Origin: Lineolata rhizophorae
Lineage: Eukaryota; Ascomycota; Dothideomycetes; Lineolatales; Lineolataceae
Direction of reading: 5' to 3'
NCBI GenBank assembly: GCA_010093515.1
Contig: MU001699.1
Location: forward strand, 328,889 to 392,888
Length of the DNA stretch: 64,000 bases
In this document: positions 44,057-64,000 of the stretch, piece by piece
Layout of the letters: each line of letters starts with the position of its first letter
How positions within the stretch are numbered: the stretch's first letter is position 1
The notes under the pieces: model-generated
Told to the model about the DNA's origin: nothing
What the model saw: only the letters and a program-made list of their open reading frames with translations
Database searches by the model: none
Position numbers and translations under genes: made by a program

Positions 44057-44846
44057 CTATGGTATACTGTGAGTTGTGGGGAAAAAAATTCAAATATAAT
44101 ACAGCACGACGCACGTTTAGTTTCTCGAAATGATTCACGAAACGAGGCAGAAATTCCGTCCTCTTAAACGAGGCTCTAAACGAGGCTGTATCCGTGTCGT
44201 GAAAACAAAGTGTCAGTTCTGACGTCCCGGGCGCATCGGATATTTGCAGCCCCTAACTGAAACTGACGAGGTGAGTAAAAGGTAGCTCCCGGTGAAGTAA
44301 ATGGTAGTCTTCGAATTAGTTCGGGGGCGGTGTCGAAGATCAAGACCAAATGTTCGTCCACCACGTACTGTCGGGCCTTATGTGTCTCATGAATGTAGGC
44401 AACTTGACAAGCCGTAAGGCAACAACAATATTTGCCTAGAGAAGTCGAGTTGATTTTTTCGATTCTTTGTCGTACGACGCCACATTAGCGGCTATTCCGC
44501 ATTCGTGACCGGTGACTCTGTTGGTGGAGGTTCATTGGACAGTTATGCGATACTCATGCAAGGCTAACTGTACACACATCTTTGTCGTACTACGCCATAT
44601 TAGCGGCTATTCCGCATTGGTGTCCGGTGACTCTGTTGATAGAGATCTATTGGACAGTTGTGTGATACTCATGCGAGGCTAGCTGTACACACATGATTCA
44701 TTGCTCAAGGTGGCTGCGCAAGAACAGGGCAGTGCTAGGAGCATAGATATAGTCTGATAGCGGGTATTACCCTAGGAGTTGGAAACGTTCTATTTCTTCT
44801 GAAAATGACCCGCCACAACCATCAGTTTCCACTAAGTTCATAGCAC
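44057..44846. other. Spacer with tandem duplication, no gene seen
   Basis: Divergent promoter space for the flanking genes. The only notable structure is the 115-base tandem duplication listed separately. Confidence 0.5.
44465..44694. repeat. 115-base imperfect tandem duplication
   Basis: Two adjacent units, 44465-44579 and 44580-44694, align without gaps and differ at 13 of 115 positions (about 89% identity). Each unit starts CTTTGTCGTAC and ends GTACACACAT. It is upstream of the DUF6594 gene (ATG 44847). Confidence 0.9.
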
Positions 44847-46283: not shown

Positions 46284-46400
46284 TGTCAGATTGTAGCTAG
46301 CGTGCCTAAACTCGCTTACGCTATCAGGGGCAGACATAAATAGCTTTCTGTGCTTCGCCACTCTTCTTTCCAATACAACACTTCAACTTCACACAACTTC
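46284..46400 (+). mobile_element. LTR-like repeat, copy A
   Basis: The sequence begins TGTCAGATTGTAGCTAGCGTGCC and is repeated in the same orientation at 50077. Copy A has CATAAATAG (TATA-like) followed by GCTTTCTGTGCTTCGCCACTC. Similarity stops abruptly at TGTCAG on the left. The TGT start and TATA box suggest a solo LTR or the end of a degraded LTR element. No target-site duplication was verified. Confidence 0.5.
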
Positions 46401-49767: not shown

Positions 49768-50076
49768 AGAGCGTACGGTGGCAAAACAGAGTGTATACGA
49801 GGTTGAGGTTGCAAAATGGGCGATCTATGTACGCTGTGGGCTAGACCGGGGCCGCATTACCTTTGGCCCCGAGCATCACGTGACTGCTGGTAAATTCGAG
49901 CCATCTTGGCATCCCGACCACACCATTGTTGTCAGAATATTAGGTGGCCCTAGTTCGCCAACCCCTGACAGGGATTCTACAAGTGTATTTATGCAGCCTC
50001 AGATAGCACCATTTTTCCAATGTCAATGGACTTGGCCTACCCATTCCAGATTTCCACTGGAATCTGTCAATTGCTG
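49768..50076. other. Upstream region of the APH-like gene
   Basis: 309 bases between the kinase-like gene and LTR-like copy B. Promoter is expected. Nothing specific is seen. Confidence 0.45.
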
Positions 50077-50198
50077 ATGTCAGATTGTAGCTAGCGTGCC
50101 TAGACTCGCTTACGTTACCATGTTGGTCCAGGGGCAGATATATATAGCTTTTCTGTGCTTCGCTACTCTCTTTTCCAATACATCACACTACAACTCTA
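50077..50198 (+). mobile_element. LTR-like repeat, copy B
   Basis: This is a near copy of 46284-46400 in the same orientation, starting at the same TGTCAG. It carries a small extra segment (TTACCATGTTGGTC region, about 50113-50128) and a GATATATATAGC TATA-like box. Similarity ends near ACTACAACTCTACA. Confidence 0.5.
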
Positions 50199-53127
50199 CA
50201 GCTGAACAGGGATCTACAGGGATAACAGTTCAAGCGATGAGGAGCCGAGGTTGCAAGGGTGGTCTCGCGCGGGCGTCAAAGCTCAACCTTCTTCACCCGC
50301 CTTCATCCGCCCCCAATTTCTTCCAAGTACACTTCTCACCTAGTGCTCTCCAAAAGTTCGCAATCAAACTTCTACTTCTCGCTTTAGATGTTGCGACTTT
50401 GCCAATCCAGCATCCGTAGGGCTTCACCGGTCCGGATCAACGCTACTGTCCTGCATGCCATTAGATGATCGCATGGACTTTTGGGATTCTGGAACATGTC
50501 CTAGGTGCTGCGACTAGGCGGAAAAATGCGCTCGGTCGCTGACCCGAAATAACCGCCTTGCGGATATGCGCGTGGACCAATGCCCAGAACTAGTCGCCTT
50601 CTGCAATTCGTTCGAGAATCCTACTGTAGGTGCAAATATGAGCTCCACTCATTCGTGCCGAACCTAGCAGATCGTCGCTTCACACACTAAGCAGAATGTT
50701 GATTGTGGAGGAGTTTGGACAATGCGCCACCTAGCGGAGGCTTGTCTTCTGGAACGATCTTTGTGGTTGGTTCCTTGATCGCTTGTCTTGCGTGACAAGA
50801 TATTCGAGGACCGGCAGCCCGGTTGCGGGCCAAGAGTCGCTGCGCCAATCTATTAGTTAGGGCGTTAGGTAGGGAATAAGCATTCTTGCTTGGCCAGCAT
50901 CCCGTATGCGATTTCGGATCAGAGGCACGAAACATGGAAATACCAGTTTCGCAGCATATTCTCGAGTTTTTAGGGGCTTTCAGACCAATCCAAGTGATAT
51001 CTGCGCGCCATCTCGAACCGTAGAACTGCCTTGGCTCTGATATGACACTCTCTCTTGATGCAAGCAATATCATGGTTTGATGGAGCTATGATAGACGTGG
51101 GCCGCTTTTCTTGCACGGCTTACATTTGGTCTTATAGTCTTGTCTAATTTGGACTGGATTGTTTTTCACTATACTTTGGGCCGTTGGCTCGGTCGATGTG
51201 TTGACAAGTCGGTTGGGGATTTTCAACTTCCGAAAGACCGAAGCTAGCCAGGACTTTGGAGACATCAATGCCGAACTCGCCGGCATGAAGAACCCCCAGG
51301 CTAAGATTGCCTCAACATCGTGGGGGCGATCGTGTCTAGGACATTGCAAAAGAGTCAAAGCTTGGAAGGCTTCTAGAAGAACTGCACTCTCCGAATACAG
51401 GATTGAGAGAAAATAGTCCCTCGGAAGCTTTCTGTGGTCAGCTTTATCCTAGGTATAACTTTTATTCGTCAAATTAAACATCCTCTCAGCGTCTAACTCA
51501 AAATATTCACATCTTAATGCACAGCAAATAGCCTCCGCCCAAGCCAAAATCGACAACTATGGCTTATACTTGAAGAGGACTACCTCCCGCATCTTGCAGA
51601 TCGCCTTACCCCGGATCTGCAAGGGGTCTGGCTCACCCTTAGCGCCCAGGGTTTCTAGATCCTTCTCGAAGAGCTGGCACGCGTGCATGTCCGTATTAGG
51701 AAGCTTTCAGCAAATATGGACTGTTTGGTTGTCTCGTCCCGTCACCGCTTGGACTAAGGACTCTCTAAGCGAAATTTCAACGGTAGACTTTTGCACACCT
51801 TCCAGCAACATGATACTCGTCATACGGAATGACATTCCGACTCGATACGTCGGACATCCCCTACACAAAGAACGCATAATAAGTAAAGATTCAAAACCTT
51901 TAGTTGACGACCCGTAAGGTACTTCGCTACCCATATTGTGGACGGGATCGTTGGAATCAGCTTCTCATGAGCTTCGGAACTAGAAAACGGATTGAAACCG
52001 CGTCGACTCCAGTGCATGATATGTGACTGAACAGGGTAATTGCTTTTGCCAGTATATGCTTGAAAACACCTAGTACTACATGGTACATGCGGACGCAAAC
52101 GCTCTAGAGCCTCACTGTGGCATAATCAGTATGATTATCAAGATCGGCACTACAAGGCAGTGAGACTACTCAGTCAAATGGCGATTAACTATCTATCCCG
52201 GTGTTGGACGCCTGCCTCTGAACTTTCTCTTACCATTAGGTCTCCATCATCAGGCAACCGAGCTGTTCACTTGCTATCTTTTGGTGGAGTTACCTTCGTG
52301 TGAAGTAGAATACAAACTCAAGCATTCAGTCCGATCAGGCTTCGATTTGGTGATCAAGTACGCAATGTCACCCGACATCTGCATACGGCAAAATAGCTGT
52401 TTCGCACGCCACCCGGGTGTGAGCTGCATTGCGACACTGGGCCTCCGCAATATCGAATGGGGCCACGAGCGGATAAGGCTGGATAAATTAGGCGATTGAG
52501 AACCCTGCACCCCGCATTTAATCCCTACTGCCCATGTGGACGGGCCATTGTCTCAGAAATCCTGGTTCGGAAGTGACCGGGACCTCGGATTTCAGGCTCG
52601 GCTTTGCTACTCCCGCACTGTTCTACAATACCGCACGCACTCACCAAGTGAGCAAACAATGCATGGCGTTACCCCAACTTTGAGCCGCCAAGGCTGCAAG
52701 ATCAAGCCATATTCGCCATCTCCCGCTGCACGCGCCACATTCGACTAGCCATAGCATAACACCAATATCGGTATACTTCGCATCTTTTGGCCCAGGTCTA
52801 CACGGACGTCCGCTTTGACACATACCAATGGCCCTTCGATAGCTATGCCGCTCATTCTTTGGAGATTATGACCTTGTATGGGCAGATGGCCTGTCCACAG
52901 CACCGCGTCATAGGTGAACGGCTAGACGGCATACCGTCGAGGCTTCTGGATATATCAAGATACCACGGACCAGCTGCCATTGCCTCTTTGCTTTCTTCCA
53001 CATCTTCTGCATACCAACGAATCTCCAGGGCAGCATACGCTTAGAGACACAGGATTCTCTGCGTTAAATGTTCTACAAAAGGTTCTGGAAACTTTAGCAG
53101 TCGGCCACTCGTTCAAAACTGTCGGCG
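50199..53127. other. About 2.9 kb of decayed sequence
   Basis: No intact gene. Around 51540-51780 one frame reads LEEDYLPHLADRLTPDLQ and, after a stop, LLEELARVHVRIRKLSANMD, which resembles the helical N-terminal segment of fungal STAND/ankyrin proteins and suggests a gene relic. Other short frames (51159-51416, 52281-52499) are not recognisable. Part of it probably derives from pseudogenes or old repeats. Confidence 0.35.
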
Positions 53128-55499: not shown

Positions 55500-56978
55500 A
55501 AGGCCTGACGTGATCGCTCCAGCGCCAACCAGTATTTCAACAAGACCACAGCTCGCCGGCCCCACTTCTGCCCCAGACAGATCTACCTCTGGCGAGATTG
55601 TAACGATGCTAATGGCCGGAAAACCGAGGAAGGGACTCCGCGTTGGGACCCCCGGAAAAGAGGTTTGGTACTTCTTTGAAGGCGATTATGTGCAGGTGAA
55701 CCTCCGAGGGAAATGGAGCCCCAGGCGACCATCTGAACCTCTCCATACCCTTGAATAGGCATCTGCTCACCTCCTGCGAAAACAGCGGATCGATTGGTTG
55801 AAGTGTACGAGGTGAATCTGTCGAGATTGTTGCATACATGGATCGTTGCAGCCGAATCAAGTAGGAAGCTGTTTCTCAAGGTGTACTGTGGGACCATGGA
55901 CCTCACACAGTGTGACAAATAGCGAGTCGTCGGCAGGGTCCTGATCGTGTGTAGAAGCCCTATCTGTGTTGGTTGTGTCGACCGTATGCACACCCTTCTG
56001 CTTCATGTACGATTCTATGTCGAGACGTTTGAGTAGTGCTTCAACCTCCTTCTTAGTAGTAGGGTTGAGCTTGTTGATGTTAGACCATACAGTCCTCTCA
56101 CCGATAGGTGACTGTTTCCAGCCCTTGGGCCTATTTTGGGGTTCAGGTAGAAGCATTTTGCATACTTATGGTAACGACCGCAAAGACACTTTTCGCCTTG
56201 TGAGGGCTCGGTTGAGGTTGAAGTTGTAGTTGAAGGACCGGGTTGGTAAGTCTGCTCAAGGGTGAGGTTACCCGAGGCCTGGAAAGTGGCGAATGTCGTA
56301 ACTTGTGGCTTCCTTGACCCTAGAGGTGGGCCTACCAGGTTGCGAATAACTTTGAATTGGCGTATGAGCTCTGGCAGATCTGGCCATTTGTTGAGAGGTT
56401 TACGAACGAGGTTCGTGAGTTTAATGCGAGCCCACTCCTCCCCAGCATGGATCAGTGAGGCCAAGAAGTGCTTCGTTGAGGCATGAGGGCCTGTTTTGAA
56501 CAGATCAACGACGATGCAATTGTTGTACATAGTCACCCACTCAGTGATCCAGCTGTCAATATTCCTCATTTTCGGTATAGACTGTTGTAGGGTATCGTAT
56601 TGTCGTCGGAGGTCAGATCGCCGGTTTTCCTCTGATGGTGCGAAGCGCTTGTAGGGGGCTCGTAAGATATCGTGAACAGATTGCTCTCCGGTAATGATCG
56701 GCTGGTGGTGGACTTGAAGGGTCGTTTCAATCAATCGCCGAATGTTCTCAAGTGCTGTATGCCGGGCCTTGTATTCGTCGTATAGCTTTTGGTTTTCATA
56801 GCGGATTATGGCGTTCTCTTCAATCATGAGTTGGCTTCGGTATCTGAGGTGGAGTTTCCACCTCTGGATCAATGAAGGGCCAGATGCCGGTAGCCTGGGC
56901 AGATCGCTCGATCATGGCGATCCAAACCGCCCAGTTACCAGGCCCATTGAACTTTACAACGCTGAGCCCAGTATCCAT
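55500..56978 (-). mobile_element. Truncated, frame-broken Ty1/Copia gag-protease
   Basis: Read from the minus strand, a gag starts at ATG 56978 with a VKFNGPGNWAVWIAMIERSA segment (KFxGxNWxxW pattern of Copia gag). It breaks frame near 56820 and continues as IIRYENQKLYDEYKARHTAL. It has a zinc-knuckle-like KCLCGRYHKYAKCF near 56150, breaks frame again in a C/A homopolymer near 56130, and once more near 55890 before the protease motif FLLDSAATIHVCNN (aspartic DSxAT). Integrase and reverse transcriptase are absent. I infer a dead 5' fragment of a Copia element. No LTR was identified next to it. Confidence 0.8.
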
Positions 56979-57114
56979 GATGAATCGTATACCGCAGTGT
57001 TGATGGTGTTCGTTTCGTATGGTCGATAATGCTCGCTTCGTACGGTCGAGGTCGAGGTCGAAGCAAGAATGCTCAAGGTATGCAGGTTATGCTCTCCTGG
57101 GTTCGGTGGCAATC
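56979..57114. other. Junction between Copia fragment and T-poor block
   Basis: This holds the Copia 5' leader side on the minus strand. A short purine/pyrimidine repeat (GGTCGAGGTCGAGGTCGA-like) lies at 57046-57061. Composition is normal until about 57115. Confidence 0.5.
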
Positions 57115-60100
57115 GTAAATGAACAAAAACCGGACAATGAGAGCAGCGGTGACCAAAACATGCGCAACGGAAAAGCGATTCCCGCCCACACAACAGACAA
57201 GCGTGAAGTGTGCACGAAGCAAAAAAAGAGGGGCGAAGCAGACAGAAAACTAAACCGACCCAGATTATGGAAACGAGACAAGACACCCCACCCAAAATCC
57301 GACACTGAACAAGAGAAGGCCAACAAGTGGGAGGAAGGGAGAAGAGAGGAACTAAGAGAACACCCAACAACAAAGAAAAGACGAGCCCGGAAACAGCGAG
57401 AAAAAATCACAGTCAAACCAAGACAGGCACTCAAACCTCCTGTACACGAAAGACTAGAAATCACCACTGAGAAGAAGCACAACCGACGCCGCTCACAGGA
57501 CACGACGGCGACACTCATCCCATAAAAAAGACCAAATCGAAAATCAACGATCAAAGAAAAAACATCCCGAGGACGTGGCCAAAGAACAGAAGAGGCCAGA
57601 AGAAACCCAAGGCAGCCACGAAAAAAACGGGGCGATGCAAAAAAAACCGTCGATTTGAAGTCCGAGATAGCACAAAGGAACCGAAAAAACAACCGAAAGC
57701 ACGACAGCGAAGCAACACAACCAGAAACAGCACAACACCAAAGCTCAACCTACAAAACAAGACAACCGAAAAAGACACCACCAGCCCAAATCCCAGTTAA
57801 CCAAGAACTAAAATACAAGAACAAACAATACCAGAAACAAGACCGTAACTAGCGCGCCTAGAACAGCCAACAGCACCAGCGAAATCCGCCGACACACATA
57901 CGACGGACAACATGACAGCGAGGCGACACTCCTAGCCAACAAAACACACCCCAACCCAAAAACAGCCCACAAAAAGTCATCCACCCCCACCACCAACCAA
58001 CCCAAGGAACCATCACAAACCAAAAAACAAAAACCAAGCAAACATAAACAAATCGCCCAGAGGGGAACACCAGCCAGGGGGCGCTAAAACCAGGACCAAA
58101 TAAACCCCCAACGCGCGCAACATGTGACCAGCCGAAAAAAGCGAGTGAGTGAGGAGGATGGCCACTAAACATGTCAGATACGACGTCACCCACACACGCC
58201 TAGGCTACAAAACCCCAAAAAGGGGAAAAACGAACGACACGCGAAGCCATGCACCATCAGATAGCACGAACCCCCAAGGGCAATGGCATGGGCCTACCGA
58301 CCATCCATACAAAAGTAAAACCGCAACCTGACACTAGCCCTCCGGAACTTAGCCCTATCTAACACACAGCAAGAGAAACAATAGAAACACAGCCAAAAAG
58401 AGGCCTCGGAACCTAGCAGCTCAGAACACCTAACAAGACCCGACCACACCTACCCATCAAACAGAGCACCAAAACAAAAAGAGCAAGCACAAACAAGATA
58501 AATAGCAGCCGAGACGCCCACGGCCGTAAGTAGACACCCAGAAAAGACGCCACAGCACATACAGCACGCTAAGTGCAGGGAGAACTGAATGCCACAGGCA
58601 CAAACTACAACAAAAGGATCAAAGAGCCAGCTAAAGGAAACATACCCAGAAAAGGAGACCCCAAGCAACAAGAAACCACCCTACTACAAACCCCTCACGC
58701 CCCCACCAAGTGCCACCACCTCCCAAGCGAACCAAACAAATACTACACGCAACAAAAACACACCTGAAGCAGATACCCAAACCCAAACCAAAGCACCAAA
58801 ATCCACTGCGTCAATCAACTAAACAACCTGCGCAGACCACACAAGAGGATCCGGAAAAGCCGCCACCACCCGACATAAATATCCCAAGCCAAAAAGGACA
58901 ACATCGCCCCAGACTATCAAAAGACACAAAGGTAGTACCGCCAGCTAGACAACAAATGACGTACACCGACAGCAGCCCCATAAAATCAAAGGGACAAAAG
59001 CTCAACGAGCAAAGCAGAAGGAACAACGCTGCGAAAGCAAAACGGAATAAACCCTCAAGATGCCACACCACCCCACAGGCAACTCCGCGGCAAGGAGACG
59101 GAAAAAGCAAGAAGAAACAACCCGACGAACACAAAAAAAGACGAGAAAAGCGACCAGAGCCCGGGAAACTAAACAACGGCGCACCGCGACAAAGGCCTGC
59201 CTCAACCACACAGCATTCCGCGAGTCCAGCAACCTAGCAGCCAGAAGAACGCCGCCGAAGACGCTCGAGGCGAAAAGGCGCAGAAAATGAAACCACCCAC
59301 AGAGCAATGCAGGGACGGGACCGCCAGACGAACCGGCGGCAGGCAGAAAGAGAACAGAAACCATCAGGACCCAAGAAGAAAAGCACCTCCAAAACACGAC
59401 GAGACGGGCTGCGACACTCAAATCGAAAACACCAGTGACAAATTAACCTGACCAAACGCCAGGAGGAAGATCCACAGACGCTACACACAAGAGCACCGAA
59501 TGACAACCCGAGATCAGGAAACAAGAGACGTCCCCCAAGACAAAACCCGCCGCGACCCCAAAGCCGAGACCAAAAGACCACCCACGGAGAAGAACAAATA
59601 GAAACGCCGGACCGTTGCAACGATACTCCCGGCAGACGGGCACATACGGGGCACGATCAAAAAGATTCGGCGGAGAAGCCAGTTCAAACGAATAGAAGAC
59701 GTCCAAACTGCGCAGAAAAAACAGCCGACCGCGCACAAGACGACATCAGAAAAAGACCCCCCAAGGAAACCGAACAGAACCCCACCAATCGGACCGCACC
59801 ACCGAGCAACGGACACCACCCACCAGCGAGCGCCTCTTCCAACAACCCAACCAATCCTGAATCCTCTTACAGCACCGAGAAGGGCAGAAATCACGCCCTG
59901 AGCGAAAAAAGACAACAACACCCAGCCGCCGACCACGGCGGACGAAAGCACAAAGTGCAGGAAGAGGAAAGCCCTAAAAGAGGCCGAACGGCAACCGAAG
60001 CAGCCCAAGCAAGCCGAAGAACCAGCACCAAGAAACGGTGAAAGGGGAGGGCAGATCCCGGCAATAGTCGCAGAGGGGCGACAGAAAAGAACAGACGGCA

Positions 60101-63100
60101 GACGAAACACACACTCCCAAAAACAAGCAAGGCTAGCCGAGGCCCACGTGTGCAACATCAAATGACCAAACCGCCACACCCCAAGAAAGCACGCCACGAG
60201 CCCATCCAATCAAACAAGAAACAGCCGGTCACGAAAGCTCCAAGACAACAGTGCAAACAAGCGCAGAAAACACACCGAAAAACAGATGCCACACGCCAAA
60301 CTCCGAAGAAAAGCGAAGAGCATACGCAGGCGACAAAAACAAACACCGGAGGCCAGAACACGAGACTAGAACGTATGCAACCCAACCAAAAGAACCCAGC
60401 CACCCGCACTCGACCCCATAGCACCGTCCAAAAGCAACTCGCTCGAAAAAACACAACGCGAAAACAAAACAAAACCAAAAACCAACCCAAGAGAAAGCCC
60501 GAAGTCAAGACGCAAAACGAATGGAATACAACAGAGAACAGACCCCAACTAACACTGAAACCACACCGAAAGAGCCCAACAGCACCAATGGAAGCACTAT
60601 GGACCGAAAAGACACGTCCCACACCAACCAAAAAAGCCAACACACCCACAACGCGCTCAGAGAGCGACGAGACCACGAATGCCAACGGAAAACCCCGAAC
60701 CCAAAACCGCCTCGGAACCAACGCGCTCCCAAAACCAAGCAACAAACCGAATCAAAACAAGCTTACACGCAAACGACGGCCCCCACAAAATTCCAAAAAG
60801 CCCAATCATCCGAACCGGCGGTCCCATGGACCACCCCAGCGCAAACTCCCACCAACACAGTAAAGGCTCCCCAAACACCAACAGATGAACACAAGACACT
60901 CAACAGCGACAACGGTCGAAAAAAAGAAACACAAAAGGCCATGATCACAGGGCATACATAGGACACAGAGACCACCCACGCGAGGCACAAAAAATAACCG
61001 GAATGACCAACACAAACAAACTCACAATTACAAGCGAGAAGACGCGCTAAGGCGAAAGACAACATCACGCAGATAAGGAAAGGAGCGCCTGAACAAGCTA
61101 CAAAAAAAACCCAGCAGCAAAATCCCCATACAAGATAAAATGAAACAGACCCAGAAGAGGAGACGCGCGAGAAGATACGAACGAAAACAGCAAGCAGACC
61201 CAAACGAAGTGAAGAGGAAGAGATGACGCGAGACACAGACAAACAGGGAGCGAGAAGAGCCGGGGAAACAACACCAGGCAAACAGAAAACACGGGAAGAA
61301 CAAACATCACAACCCACAAAGCAGGAAAGGCGGACGCGAGAACAAGAAGGACAAATACGAAACTGGACACGCCCGCGCAGCCCCCGTCGAGCAAAAATCA
61401 AACAAACAGAGGAAGAGATCGACCAGACAAAACAAAAAAACTAAACAGCAACACCCAAACCCGAGCACCACCCCATCGAACAACACACCACATTCGCCAA
61501 CATAAACGACACAGACCATTAAAACAAAGAACCACACTCCCAAGGGCGGCCCTAGCGACAAGACGCAAAACCCCAAAACCCAGAACCACTCCGAAAGCGG
61601 AGCCGAAACGAACACGAGCCGCAAAGCAAAACCGGAGGAAAAAAACACAAACAACCAGCCGAATCGGCCGATCGAGAAACAAACAACACGGAAAAACAGA
61701 AGAACAAGACCTCAAGAGCAAGAATGGAAAGGGCGAACACCACGGAGACCCGAACAAAAGCCCCTACTTCGAGCCACGGCCAAACGGGCAGCGCGACACA
61801 GCCCACAAAACAGAACCGAGACACGTGAACAAAAACAGACCACACCTCGACACCATAAACCATAACCTAAACAAGGGACGCCGACAAGACCTACGAACCA
61901 ACCCACAGCAGCGAACGGATCACCACATCCCGTCCGAGAAACAAAAAACCCACAACAGGCATATACGCCAAAGGAGAAAGCAAACCGAGGATTGGCAGGA
62001 CAGGAGAAACGCAAACACCGACTGCAAGATCGAAGACAGCCGAGAAAAGAAAGGATCAAGAACCACACCAAGAGATGCGGAAAAAAAAATGCTCGATCAA
62101 TCTGCACCGGGACAGCAGGAGGAACAGCTTACACACACTAAGAAGGCGAACCAACCAGGAACCGGCACCCTCGCCCAAAGAGCCAGGACCAAGTAAAGAA
62201 CCAGCAACCAAAACCAAAACCCACAAGAGAACCGGGGAATAGATCACGAAAACCAGACAAAGGAAACACACAACGCCCCGACAAATCACACCCAAAGAGA
62301 AGGATAACAACAAGAGCAAGCAACAACTCAGAAGCAAACAACCAGCCAGGACACCGACTAAGAATGCGCAACGAAAACAAAAAAAAAACACGCAAACTAC
62401 CCAAACACGAAAAACACCGTCGACCAGCTGCAAGCACTAGGGAAAAAAAGACCCACCACCGGGGGCGGCAACTCACCCAAAAGGCCCTCGAAATGCGCAA
62501 AAGATACCAATAGCAACAAAGAGTCAAAAACAAACGCCAAGCCACACCCAACCCGAATCTGACCATCGAAACTCCCAGATCCTATCCACAAATCGGGCAC
62601 ACGACCCAAAAACCCCCATGCAACGGCTAGCCACCTAGAACAACTCGGCCCCGACACGGGAGACCCATGCACCAAAAGAAGAGACAAAACAGGCACACGC
62701 CCCGAAGACGCACAACGAACGCGTCCATAACCGAGCAGCTCAAACCACCACGATGTACGCCAAGATCGAGCGCACCCTGCCAGCAGAGACCCTACCAGAC
62801 GACACAGTCCGAGGCAACGCCCAGAAAGACCAAAACGCCCTGCCAAACACAGACAACAGCGACAAATTTCAAACGAAGACCCCCCACCAAGACACGCCAA
62901 ACAGAAAGCGCAACAACCACCGACCAGACACCAGCACGCCAACCTCAACAAGTACCGCCAATAGGACAGCCGCCAAGCCGCGTGCGACCGCTCACACGGC
63001 GACCACCTGCAGGACGACCTCGTCCAGAGCTATCACTCACAGGGACGCACACCAAACACCTCCACGCGCAACACTCACCTGCACAACCACAGCGCGCCCA

Positions 63101-63350
63101 AAACTACATCCCGCTGGGCGACCGCTCGTAATAAGACCTCCCAAACACCCCAGAGAAACGCAAACCCGAGTTATAGACCATCGACCTTCTACAAACACAA
63201 GTCAACACAGAAACATAGAAAGAGCAGAAACAAGCAACCGCGCGCAGACCGCCAGCCGTCAAGTAACGACATACCCACAGAGCAGTGCGTAGTAAGGAGT
63301 CACACGACCCACAAGGCAGCACACAAAAAACAACCACCTCCAGCTCAGAA
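57115..63350. other. 6.2-kb thymine-depleted, A/C-rich block
   Basis: Eight 60-base lines sampled across the block contain 24 T in 480 bases (5%). A reaches 50-55% in the richest lines and C is next. Lines just left and right return to about 15-25% T. Since all stop codons need T on the + strand and A on the - strand, long open frames appear on both strands, but they are low-complexity (Lys/Thr/Pro/Asn/Gln on +, Phe/Cys/Leu/Val on -), carry no domains and break at random. I see no tandem unit, tRNA or known element. It directly precedes the LINE ORF1 on the same strand. Confidence 0.85.
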
Positions 63351-63454
63351 CCAGTTTTTGGAAACGCGTCAAATTTTGCAAACCACACAGTCTACCGGTA
63401 TCTCCATAGGCAATTACCGCAGAAAACGCGTCCAGACGCGTCCATTTTGCAGTG
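63351..63454 (+). promoter_or_regulatory. LINE leader with three ACGCGT boxes
   Basis: ACGCGT occurs at 63364-63369, 63426-63431 and 63436-63441. Two copies are followed by a similar ATTTTGCA string (63371-63380 and 63444-63451), so a short motif is repeated just upstream of the ORF1 ATG. This may be the internal promoter region of the LINE. Confidence 0.4.
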
Positions 63455-64000
63455 ATGGCGCCTAGGTGGCCGCAGGTAAACAATGGCCCCGAAAACATCA
63501 ACGAGCACGCCACCTACCTCAGAGAAGCATGCAACCAATTGCAAACGGTCGATAGAGGAAGACAGAACCAAGTCCCATGGAATATAGTACAACCATACAT
63601 GGAATCAACCATTGCGCTCATCGGCAAAGTCCTGCGACAGCCTGCGATGGAGGCGATCCTCCAGCACGTCCAGGACGCAGCCAAATGTACAGAGAACATC
63701 CAAAGAGACATCACGACTATCAAGAACTCCGTCGGACTGAGCACTACTCCACCAAATCCGGCTAACTTCGGCGGAGGAAGACCTGCCGCGACGACCTGGG
63801 CTCAGGTCGCAGCACAGGCAAGAGACCCTCCGCCAGTGCCGCCAGGCGCATCCGCTACCAGGAATCAGCCAACGGTCACGGCATATAAGGACCGAGTGGT
63901 AACAGTCAAGCTCAAGGACCACGGAATCGCCCGGCGTTTCCGAACGCATCCAGCGACCTGGATCAGGATGCAAGTGGTGACCTCAGTACACGACAACGCA
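63455..64000 (+). mobile_element. Tad1-like LINE ORF1 (gag-like), 5' part
   Basis: An open frame from ATG 63455 runs 182 codons without a stop to the window edge, so it is partial. It begins MAPRWPQVNNGPENINE, continues with helical MEAILQHVQDAAKCTENIQR, then TTWAQVAAQARDPPPVPPGA, and KDRVVTVKLKDHGIARRF. The order (helical start, T-W-A-x-V-A linker, Pro-rich segment, then a KDR-VxVKL strand) is that of fungal Tad1-clade LINE ORF1 proteins, which bind the element RNA. Zinc knuckles and the ORF2 endonuclease/reverse transcriptase would lie beyond the window. Codon quality looks intact and non-decayed. Confidence 0.62.

What the first reader, a model, noticed from the sequence alone, without database searches (positions are those of the whole stretch)
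57115..63350. A 6.2-kb block almost free of thymine on one strand
Hand count gives 24 T in 480 bases over eight lines spread through the block, against 13 T in the single line at 63361-63420. Both edges are abrupt (about 57115 and 63350). The block is extremely rich in CpA, the preferred RIP target, so it has not been RIP-mutated. It is not an obvious tandem repeat and the frames in it are composition artefacts. It abuts a LINE ORF1 in the same orientation whose sense strand would be the A-rich one. Hypotheses: a giant uridine-poor 5' leader of a Tad1-like LINE; an independent non-coding element; or the product of a strand-asymmetric mutation process. I know of no described fungal element with such a segment.
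Basis: partly seen in the sequence, partly recalled or inferred. Interest (0 to 1): 0.88.

Follow-up and report, generated by a model that had tools for sequence, protein, structure and literature searches.

The report
Thymine-stripped DNA beside a jumping gene
Next to a young jumping gene in a mangrove fungus lies a 6.2-kilobase stretch with very few thymines on one strand; parts of its left fifth can be shown to be ordinary repeat DNA whose thymines were mostly replaced by other bases, which points to an unusual one-strand burst of mutation that has so far been seen once and still needs checking in raw sequencing reads.

Summary
Bases 57116-63330 hold A 42%, C 31.5%, G 20%, T 6.6%, with abrupt edges. 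The block is not a LINE leader: the LINE starts at about 63331, and the C35 copy has ordinary DNA upstream. It is not plain random sequence either. Allowing for loss of T, four pieces of ordinary repeat or element DNA appear in the block's left 1.2 kb. With neutral scoring, two of them pooled kept T at 21/64 sites, G 36/56, C 43/56, A 66/72; normal copies of the two repeats keep 87-96% of each base. Only 2 of 184 non-T sites became T. Replacing T in normal DNA of this genome also reproduces the block's low adjacent-base information. Best reading: in-place, strand-coordinated hypermutation of ordinary DNA, ending at the 5' end of a young Tad1/I-like LINE. I infer, not show, mutagenic strand synthesis over a resected or gapped flank during LINE integration. 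Caveats: one case; the right 5 kb has no identified relatives; the other half of the insertion is inferred; the target-duplication test was negative; no raw reads, so an assembly artefact remains possible. The genome is that of Lineolata rhizophorae (Dothideomycetes), by protein identity.

The parts
57116..63330 (+). T-depleted tract (A-depleted on the minus strand)
   Evidence: Composition and change points; no second copy found
57125..57212 (-). T-depleted leader (and last bases of the LTR-like repeat) of the gag fragment, collinear with the relative at C19 (L010)
   Evidence: Anchored extension score 37; highest of 300 shuffles 17; highest of 145 other block places 15
57204..57304 (-). T-depleted copy of LTR-like repeat R2, just upstream of the gag leader
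   Evidence: Neutral alignment score 69, highest of 60 shuffled blocks 35; T kept 6/22, A 33/36
57826..57959 (+). T-depleted R2 fragment
   Evidence: Tolerant scores 34.7 (one shuffled block: at most 31.8) and 48.8 with the second matrix (three shuffles: at most 32.9); with neutral scoring only 35, equal to the highest shuffle; weakest of the four
58172..58333 (+). T-depleted full-length copy of the 149-bp inverted-end repeat R1
   Evidence: Neutral score 57, highest of 100 shuffles 30; T kept 15/42, A 33/36; a model built from block 58172-58560 finds 9 of 10 normal R1 copies given to it
63331..64000 (+). 5' end of a LINE (start of ORF1); contig ends here
   Evidence: Near-identical in C27, C35, C36; C35 ORF2 has endonuclease, RVT_1, RNase H
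56015..57115 (-). Unmutated gag fragment and proximal leader of an LTR-retrotransposon remnant
   Evidence: 88% and 73% relatives at C23 and C19; substitutions spread over all four bases
49930..50071 (+). Normal R1 copy used as reference
   Evidence: 39 R1 places among the 40 candidates scored of 73, this one included
50079..50199 (+). Normal R2 copy used as reference
46284..46394 (+). Normal R2 copy
   Evidence: T-tolerant match to block 57201-57304

Best explanation
The block is ordinary TE-bearing genomic DNA that was hypermutated in place, in one strand sense, over 6.2 kb. SHOWN (for pieces of the left 1.2 kb): T on the plus strand was replaced at about two thirds of sites by C, A or G, with weaker loss of G and, in R1, of C, and almost no change to A or towards T. 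INFERRED: the same applies to the other 5 kb; it was one recent event; and it is tied to insertion of the adjacent young LINE, because the tract ends at the LINE's 5' end. Proposed mechanism: on the LINE's 5' side the broken flank was resected or left gapped for 6.2 kb, then re-synthesised by a low-fidelity polymerase under a strong nucleotide bias (the LINE cDNA 3' end sits where it could prime leftward synthesis of a minus strand poor in A); a later replication fixed the changed strand.
For: T-tolerant alignment finds normal relatives above shuffles; on the same 96 chunks A-, C- or G-tolerant versions reach at most 28.1, 31.1 and 32.5 against 44.7. Neutral-scored tables: R1 alone, kept T 15/42, G 20/30, C 29/39, A 33/36 against 795/861, 580/614, 753/806, 727/760 in 21 normal copies (Fisher 1.6e-18, 8.6e-6, 3.0e-4, 0.22); R2 alone, T 6/22, G 16/26, C 14/17, A 33/36 against 241/263, 267/302, 173/193, 346/397 in 13 normal pieces (1.7e-11, 8.8e-4, 0.41, 0.60). 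Leader at the very edge: minus-strand A kept 5/19 and T 26/28, against 175/243 and 117/159 in the adjoining unmutated part. Replacing 74% of T in 60 normal 6.2-kb segments gives mean adjacent-base information 1.89 mbit; block 1.89, normal 7.4; surviving T keep the natural TA deficit, 0.78 against 0.77. T content is even along the tract while C and G vary. Shared LINE sequence of C30 and C35 begins at 63327-63331, where the T-poor composition ends. From 63361 the LINE's 640 bases equal the C35 copy; one T-run length differs further left. The flanks beyond the LINE 3' end in C27 and C36 have normal composition.
Against: One case: of two readable 5' flanks of this LINE, one (C35) has no tract. 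No relatives found for 58341-63330, so 5 of 6.2 kb are unanchored. Target-site duplication test for C30/C36 negative: 323 of 3000 random flanks score as well. The tract lies near a contig end and no reads were available. In the simulation T loss alone gave A 0.335 and G 0.296, not the block's 0.42 and 0.20, so extra G loss or a skewed ancestor is needed. The change spectrum (T to A 14, C 17, G 12) does not follow one simple nucleotide-pool model. No polymerase was identified or sought.
Confidence: 0.45

Rival explanations
1. Hypermutation in place, but unrelated to the LINE, which later inserted at the tract's edge by chance or because the edge was a break site.
For: The per-base tables need no LINE; the C35 LINE copy lacks a tract.
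Against: Tract end and LINE start agree within about 25 bases in a 6.2-kb tract; both held sequences beyond LINE 3' ends are normal.
Confidence: 0.2
2. Sequencing or assembly artefact: a faulty read or fill near a contig end.
For: Single copy near a contig end; contig ends 670 bp further on; no reads available; no other such tract in the roughly 245 kb examined.
Against: Changes are mostly substitutions of one base class, unlike usual long-read errors (recalled); repeat relatives are collinear; edge coincides with LINE start; no N in the window.
Confidence: 0.22
3. DGR-like event: an error-prone reverse transcriptase copied an RNA of this region, misreading template A, and the cDNA replaced the locus.
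For: T to A/C/G on one strand at a very high rate resembles cDNA of DGR reverse transcriptase, for which 30.65% and 51.2% error opposite template A are reported (PMC12875486, passages).
Against: G is also lost above background in both repeats, and C in R1; no unmutated template copy found, though the search misses such relatives; DGRs are described from bacteria, archaea and microbial viruses (abstract start of PMC6328139 in the listing).
Confidence: 0.08
4. Giant U-poor 5' leader of the LINE.
For: Same orientation; the LINE itself is mildly T-poor (16% T).
Against: C35 copy starts at the matching base with ordinary DNA upstream; the C27 contig ends within a base or two of the same point; block holds other repeats.
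Confidence: 0.01
5. Random, non-templated or noise sequence.
For: Base order of A, C and G is close to independent.
Against: Recognisable repeats; natural neighbour bias around surviving T over the whole block.
Confidence: 0.04

Closest known systems
Kataegis / strand-coordinated mutation showers in ssDNA at breaks (APOBEC; PMC6786661, passages read)
   Same: Kilobase tract, one strand sense, clustering, next to a presumed break or integration site
   Different: Those hit C, typically in tCw context; here about 67% of T are changed in the measured pieces. The weaker G to A and G to C changes (9 and 11 of 56) would be C changes on the other strand, so a minor deaminase part is not excluded
Diversity-generating retroelement mutagenic retrohoming (PMC12875486, passages read)
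   Same: Replacement of one base (T in the cDNA sense) by the other three at a rate of tens of percent
   Different: No template/variable repeat pair found, no DGR reverse transcriptase sought or identified, tract of 6.2 kb, other bases also changed, eukaryote
Repeat-induced point mutation (RIP) of fungi (recalled)
   Same: Heavy mutation of repeat-bearing DNA in an ascomycete
   Different: RIP makes C to T on either strand and raises T; here T is removed from one strand
Tad1/I-like LINE insertion junctions (recalled)
   Same: Adjacent element has APE-type endonuclease, RT and RNase H
   Different: Kilobase hypermutated 5' flanks are not a described feature that I know of

Membership tests
Strand-coordinated clustered hypermutation | Clustered substitutions of one base sense on one strand relative to unmutated relatives | tested here: met
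   T 21/64 kept against A 66/72 (Fisher 2.8e-13), in the two best anchored repeats
Strand-coordinated clustered hypermutation | Association with a break or ssDNA intermediate | tested here: inconclusive
   Tract ends at LINE 5' end; target duplication test negative
APOBEC kataegis | Changes confined to C (C to T or C to G, tC context) of one strand | tested here: not met
   The main change is at T (43 of 64). Plus-strand C to T 1 and C to G 2 of 56; minus-strand C (plus G) to T 9 and to G 11 of 56. Context not tested
RIP | C to T (G to A on the other strand) with T or A gain and no loss of T | tested here: not met
   T lost at 43 of 64 sites; changes to T 2 of 184; G to A 9 of 56
Diversity-generating retroelement | Mutagenesis at template adenines only | tested here: not met
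   G lost above background in R1 (p 8.6e-6) and R2 (8.8e-4), C in R1 (3.0e-4) but not in R2 (0.41)
Diversity-generating retroelement | Template repeat elsewhere in the genome | tested here: inconclusive
   None found, but that search also misses the known R1 relatives
Diversity-generating retroelement | DGR-type reverse transcriptase and accessory protein | not tested
   No search was made for one in this genome
LINE 5' leader | Present upstream of ORF1 in other copies | tested here: not met
   Absent in C35

The most novel reading that the evidence does not exclude
LINE integration in this fungus can trigger mutagenic re-synthesis of kilobases of its 5' flank by a polymerase that hardly ever inserts one nucleotide (T on the plus strand, or A on the minus strand), a base-specific hypermutation path not described in eukaryotes as far as I know and comparable in rate to bacterial DGRs.
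Probability: 0.3. Interest if true: 0.92.

Novelty: new variant of a known kind. Interest (0 to 1): 0.72.

Why it matters
If real, it shows that a eukaryotic chromosome can have about a third of its sites rewritten in a kilobase tract, mainly at one base of one strand (82 of 248 aligned sites in the two best repeats). It would be a base specificity unlike RIP or APOBEC, and a possible unseen cost of LINE insertion. It also gives a practical lesson: such tracts escape ordinary homology searches (the known R1 relatives were invisible to the genome search) and look like non-coding novelties until base loss is allowed for.

Tried and rejected
LINE leader: rejected by the C35 copy. Random or noise sequence: entertained after (base order near independent), dropped. 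Hidden coding region: no sign. RNA family: one match far below its gathering score. Phage DNA: no match. The first T-tolerant alignment was scored too leniently to mean anything; its plain-scored version was not above shuffles either (55 against a mean of 58.6), so the leader homology shows only in the anchored test and the later tolerant search (43.8). The second tolerant matrix was set from the R1 result, so it is not independent for R1. TSD between C30 block end and C36 flank: looked good by eye, failed the control. T-interleaved rows for a tolerant model were misaligned by the aligner and not used. C36 flank as route to an unmutated parent: apart from the LINE end it matched nothing else. 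Scripts 19 and 36 stopped with errors (36 after printing its alignments). Literature: searches showed no report of this kind of tract; listings only, apart from passages of two papers. Searches returned no paper at all, so absence from print is weakly tested.
Full report
Where it is. A window protein is identical to a Lineolata rhizophorae protein on a contig of 392,888 bases, the length of the contig that holds the window (C30). The window is the last 64 kb of that contig. The contig ends 670 bases into a LINE.

The observation. Bases 57116-63330 are T-poor: over 57115-63350 A is 0.42, C 0.315, G 0.20, T 0.066. Change points are 57116 and 63338. No other tract like it was found in 244,842 other bases held from this genome (extremes of AT skew 0.56 and -0.58 in 4752 windows, block mean 0.73; 18 windows reach the block's minimum in either sense). 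No second copy was found, no coding signal and no internal repeats.

Not a LINE leader. The LINE of about 6.3 kb has two long open frames in its C27 copy. The C35 ORF2 carries endonuclease, reverse transcriptase and RNase H domains. Near-identical copies lie on C27, C35 and C36 (99.7-99.9%). In C35 the shared sequence begins at the base matching window 63327-63331, preceded by ordinary DNA. The C27 contig ends within a base or two of the same point. Of the two 5' flanks that can be read, C30 and C35, only C30 has the tract. On single differing bases, C30 is compatible with C36 as the other half of the same LINE and conflicts with C27 at one base; this pairing is inference.

Not plain random sequence. 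Adjacent-base information in the block is low (1.89 mbit against a mean of 7.4 in 60 normal 6.2-kb segments). Replacing 74% of T in those segments gives a mean of 1.89. The surviving T still avoid a following A as in normal DNA (0.78 against 0.77). The simulation did not give the block's high A and low G, so something more than T loss, or a skewed ancestor, is needed.

Direct evidence from relatives. At the left edge, the leader upstream of the gag fragment stays collinear with the relative on C19 for 88 bases inside the block: anchored score 37, highest of 300 shuffles 17, highest of 145 other block places 15. An unanchored plain search did not show it. There, minus-strand A is kept at 5 of 19 and T at 26 of 28; in the adjoining unmutated part A is kept at 175 of 243 and T at 117 of 159. 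A Smith-Waterman search that tolerates natural T becoming another base, run on 96 chunks of held natural DNA, found further matches above shuffled blocks. Versions tolerant of A, C or G found nothing comparable.

These matches are two dispersed repeats. R1 is a 149-bp repeat with inverted ends; 39 places were listed among the 40 candidates scored of 73. R2 looks like an LTR (starts TGTCAGA, has a TATATA stretch, lies just upstream of the gag leader); the name is my inference. I fetched 20 normal R1 copies and 11 R2 pieces and used all of them with the window's own copies (21 and 13). With scoring that treats all bases alike, R1 aligns to block 58172-58333 over its whole length (score 57, highest of 100 shuffles 30) and R2 to 57204-57304 (69, highest of 60 shuffles 35). 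A second R2 fragment at 57826-57959 is supported by the tolerant search only; with neutral scoring it equals the highest shuffle. A sequence model built from block 58172-58560 alone, run on the window, L010 and 10 of the 20 fetched R1 copies, found 9 of the 10 copies (L042 missed), L010 and the window's own normal copy.

The change spectrum (R1 and R2 at 57204 pooled): T kept 21/64 (to C 17, A 14, G 12); G kept 36/56 (to C 11, A 9); C kept 43/56 (to A 10, G 2, T 1); A kept 66/72. Of 184 non-T sites 2 became T. Normal R1 copies keep 92-96% of each base, normal R2 pieces 87-92%. Taken apart, T loss is overwhelming in both (1.6e-18, 1.7e-11), G loss is present in both (8.6e-6, 8.8e-4), C loss in R1 only (3.0e-4; R2 0.41), and A is not affected (0.22, 0.60). 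The order of retention A, C, G, T is also the order of final composition.

Age and shape. T content is even along the tract while C and G vary (chi-square p 0.81 for T, 1.8e-4 for C and 1.5e-4 for G at 300 bp), as expected if a uniform loss of T was laid over varied DNA. The near lack of new T and the youth of the LINE suggest a recent event. Both are inference.

Mechanism. The tract ends at the LINE 5' end, where target-primed reverse transcription leaves the cDNA 3' end to be joined to the left flank (established knowledge, recalled). Resection of that flank would expose the plus strand, and filling from the cDNA 3' end leftward would make a new minus strand. A polymerase that rarely inserts A there would give the observed pattern; equally, a newly made plus strand that rarely gets T would. 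A uracil-rich plus strand followed by bypass of abasic sites is another route to T loss. I hold the LINE-linked version as most likely (0.45), without proof. Against it: one case, one tract-free sister insertion, and a negative target-duplication test (323 of 3000 random flanks as good).

Limits. The right 5 kb (58341-63330) has no identified relatives, so its origin rests on equal composition and statistics. The genome search does not see the known R1 relatives of the block, so a missing parent copy means little. No reads were available, so an artefact near a contig end keeps a probability of about 0.2.

Comparison. It works like strand-coordinated mutation showers (PMC6786661, passages) and, in rate and one-base focus, like DGR reverse transcription (PMC12875486, passages), but fails the defining base rules of APOBEC kataegis, RIP and DGR as tested here.

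Noticed in passing
window 56015-57115 (-): Remnant of an LTR-retrotransposon gag with a CxCGxxH-type zinc knuckle (motif recalled); relatives at 88% (C23) and 73% (C19).
   Followed up: partly
window 44464-44694: Two-copy tandem repeat of 115 bp (88% matches).
   Followed up: no
window 49930-50199: R1 inverted-end repeat and R2 LTR-like repeat side by side; two of the 20 fetched R1 copies (L046, L054) carry a short insertion at the point where the block copy has one of 7 bp.
   Followed up: partly
C36 LINE copy (L032/L007): Internal deletion of 80 bp relative to the C27 and C35 copies.
   Followed up: no
L014 1-36 and L017 1-36: Contigs C1 and C4 start with CCCTAA telomere repeats; contig C30 ends in a LINE, not a telomere.
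   Followed up: no
L006 629-1451: An older LINE 3' end, 76-81% identical, lies directly upstream of the young LINE on C35.
   Followed up: no
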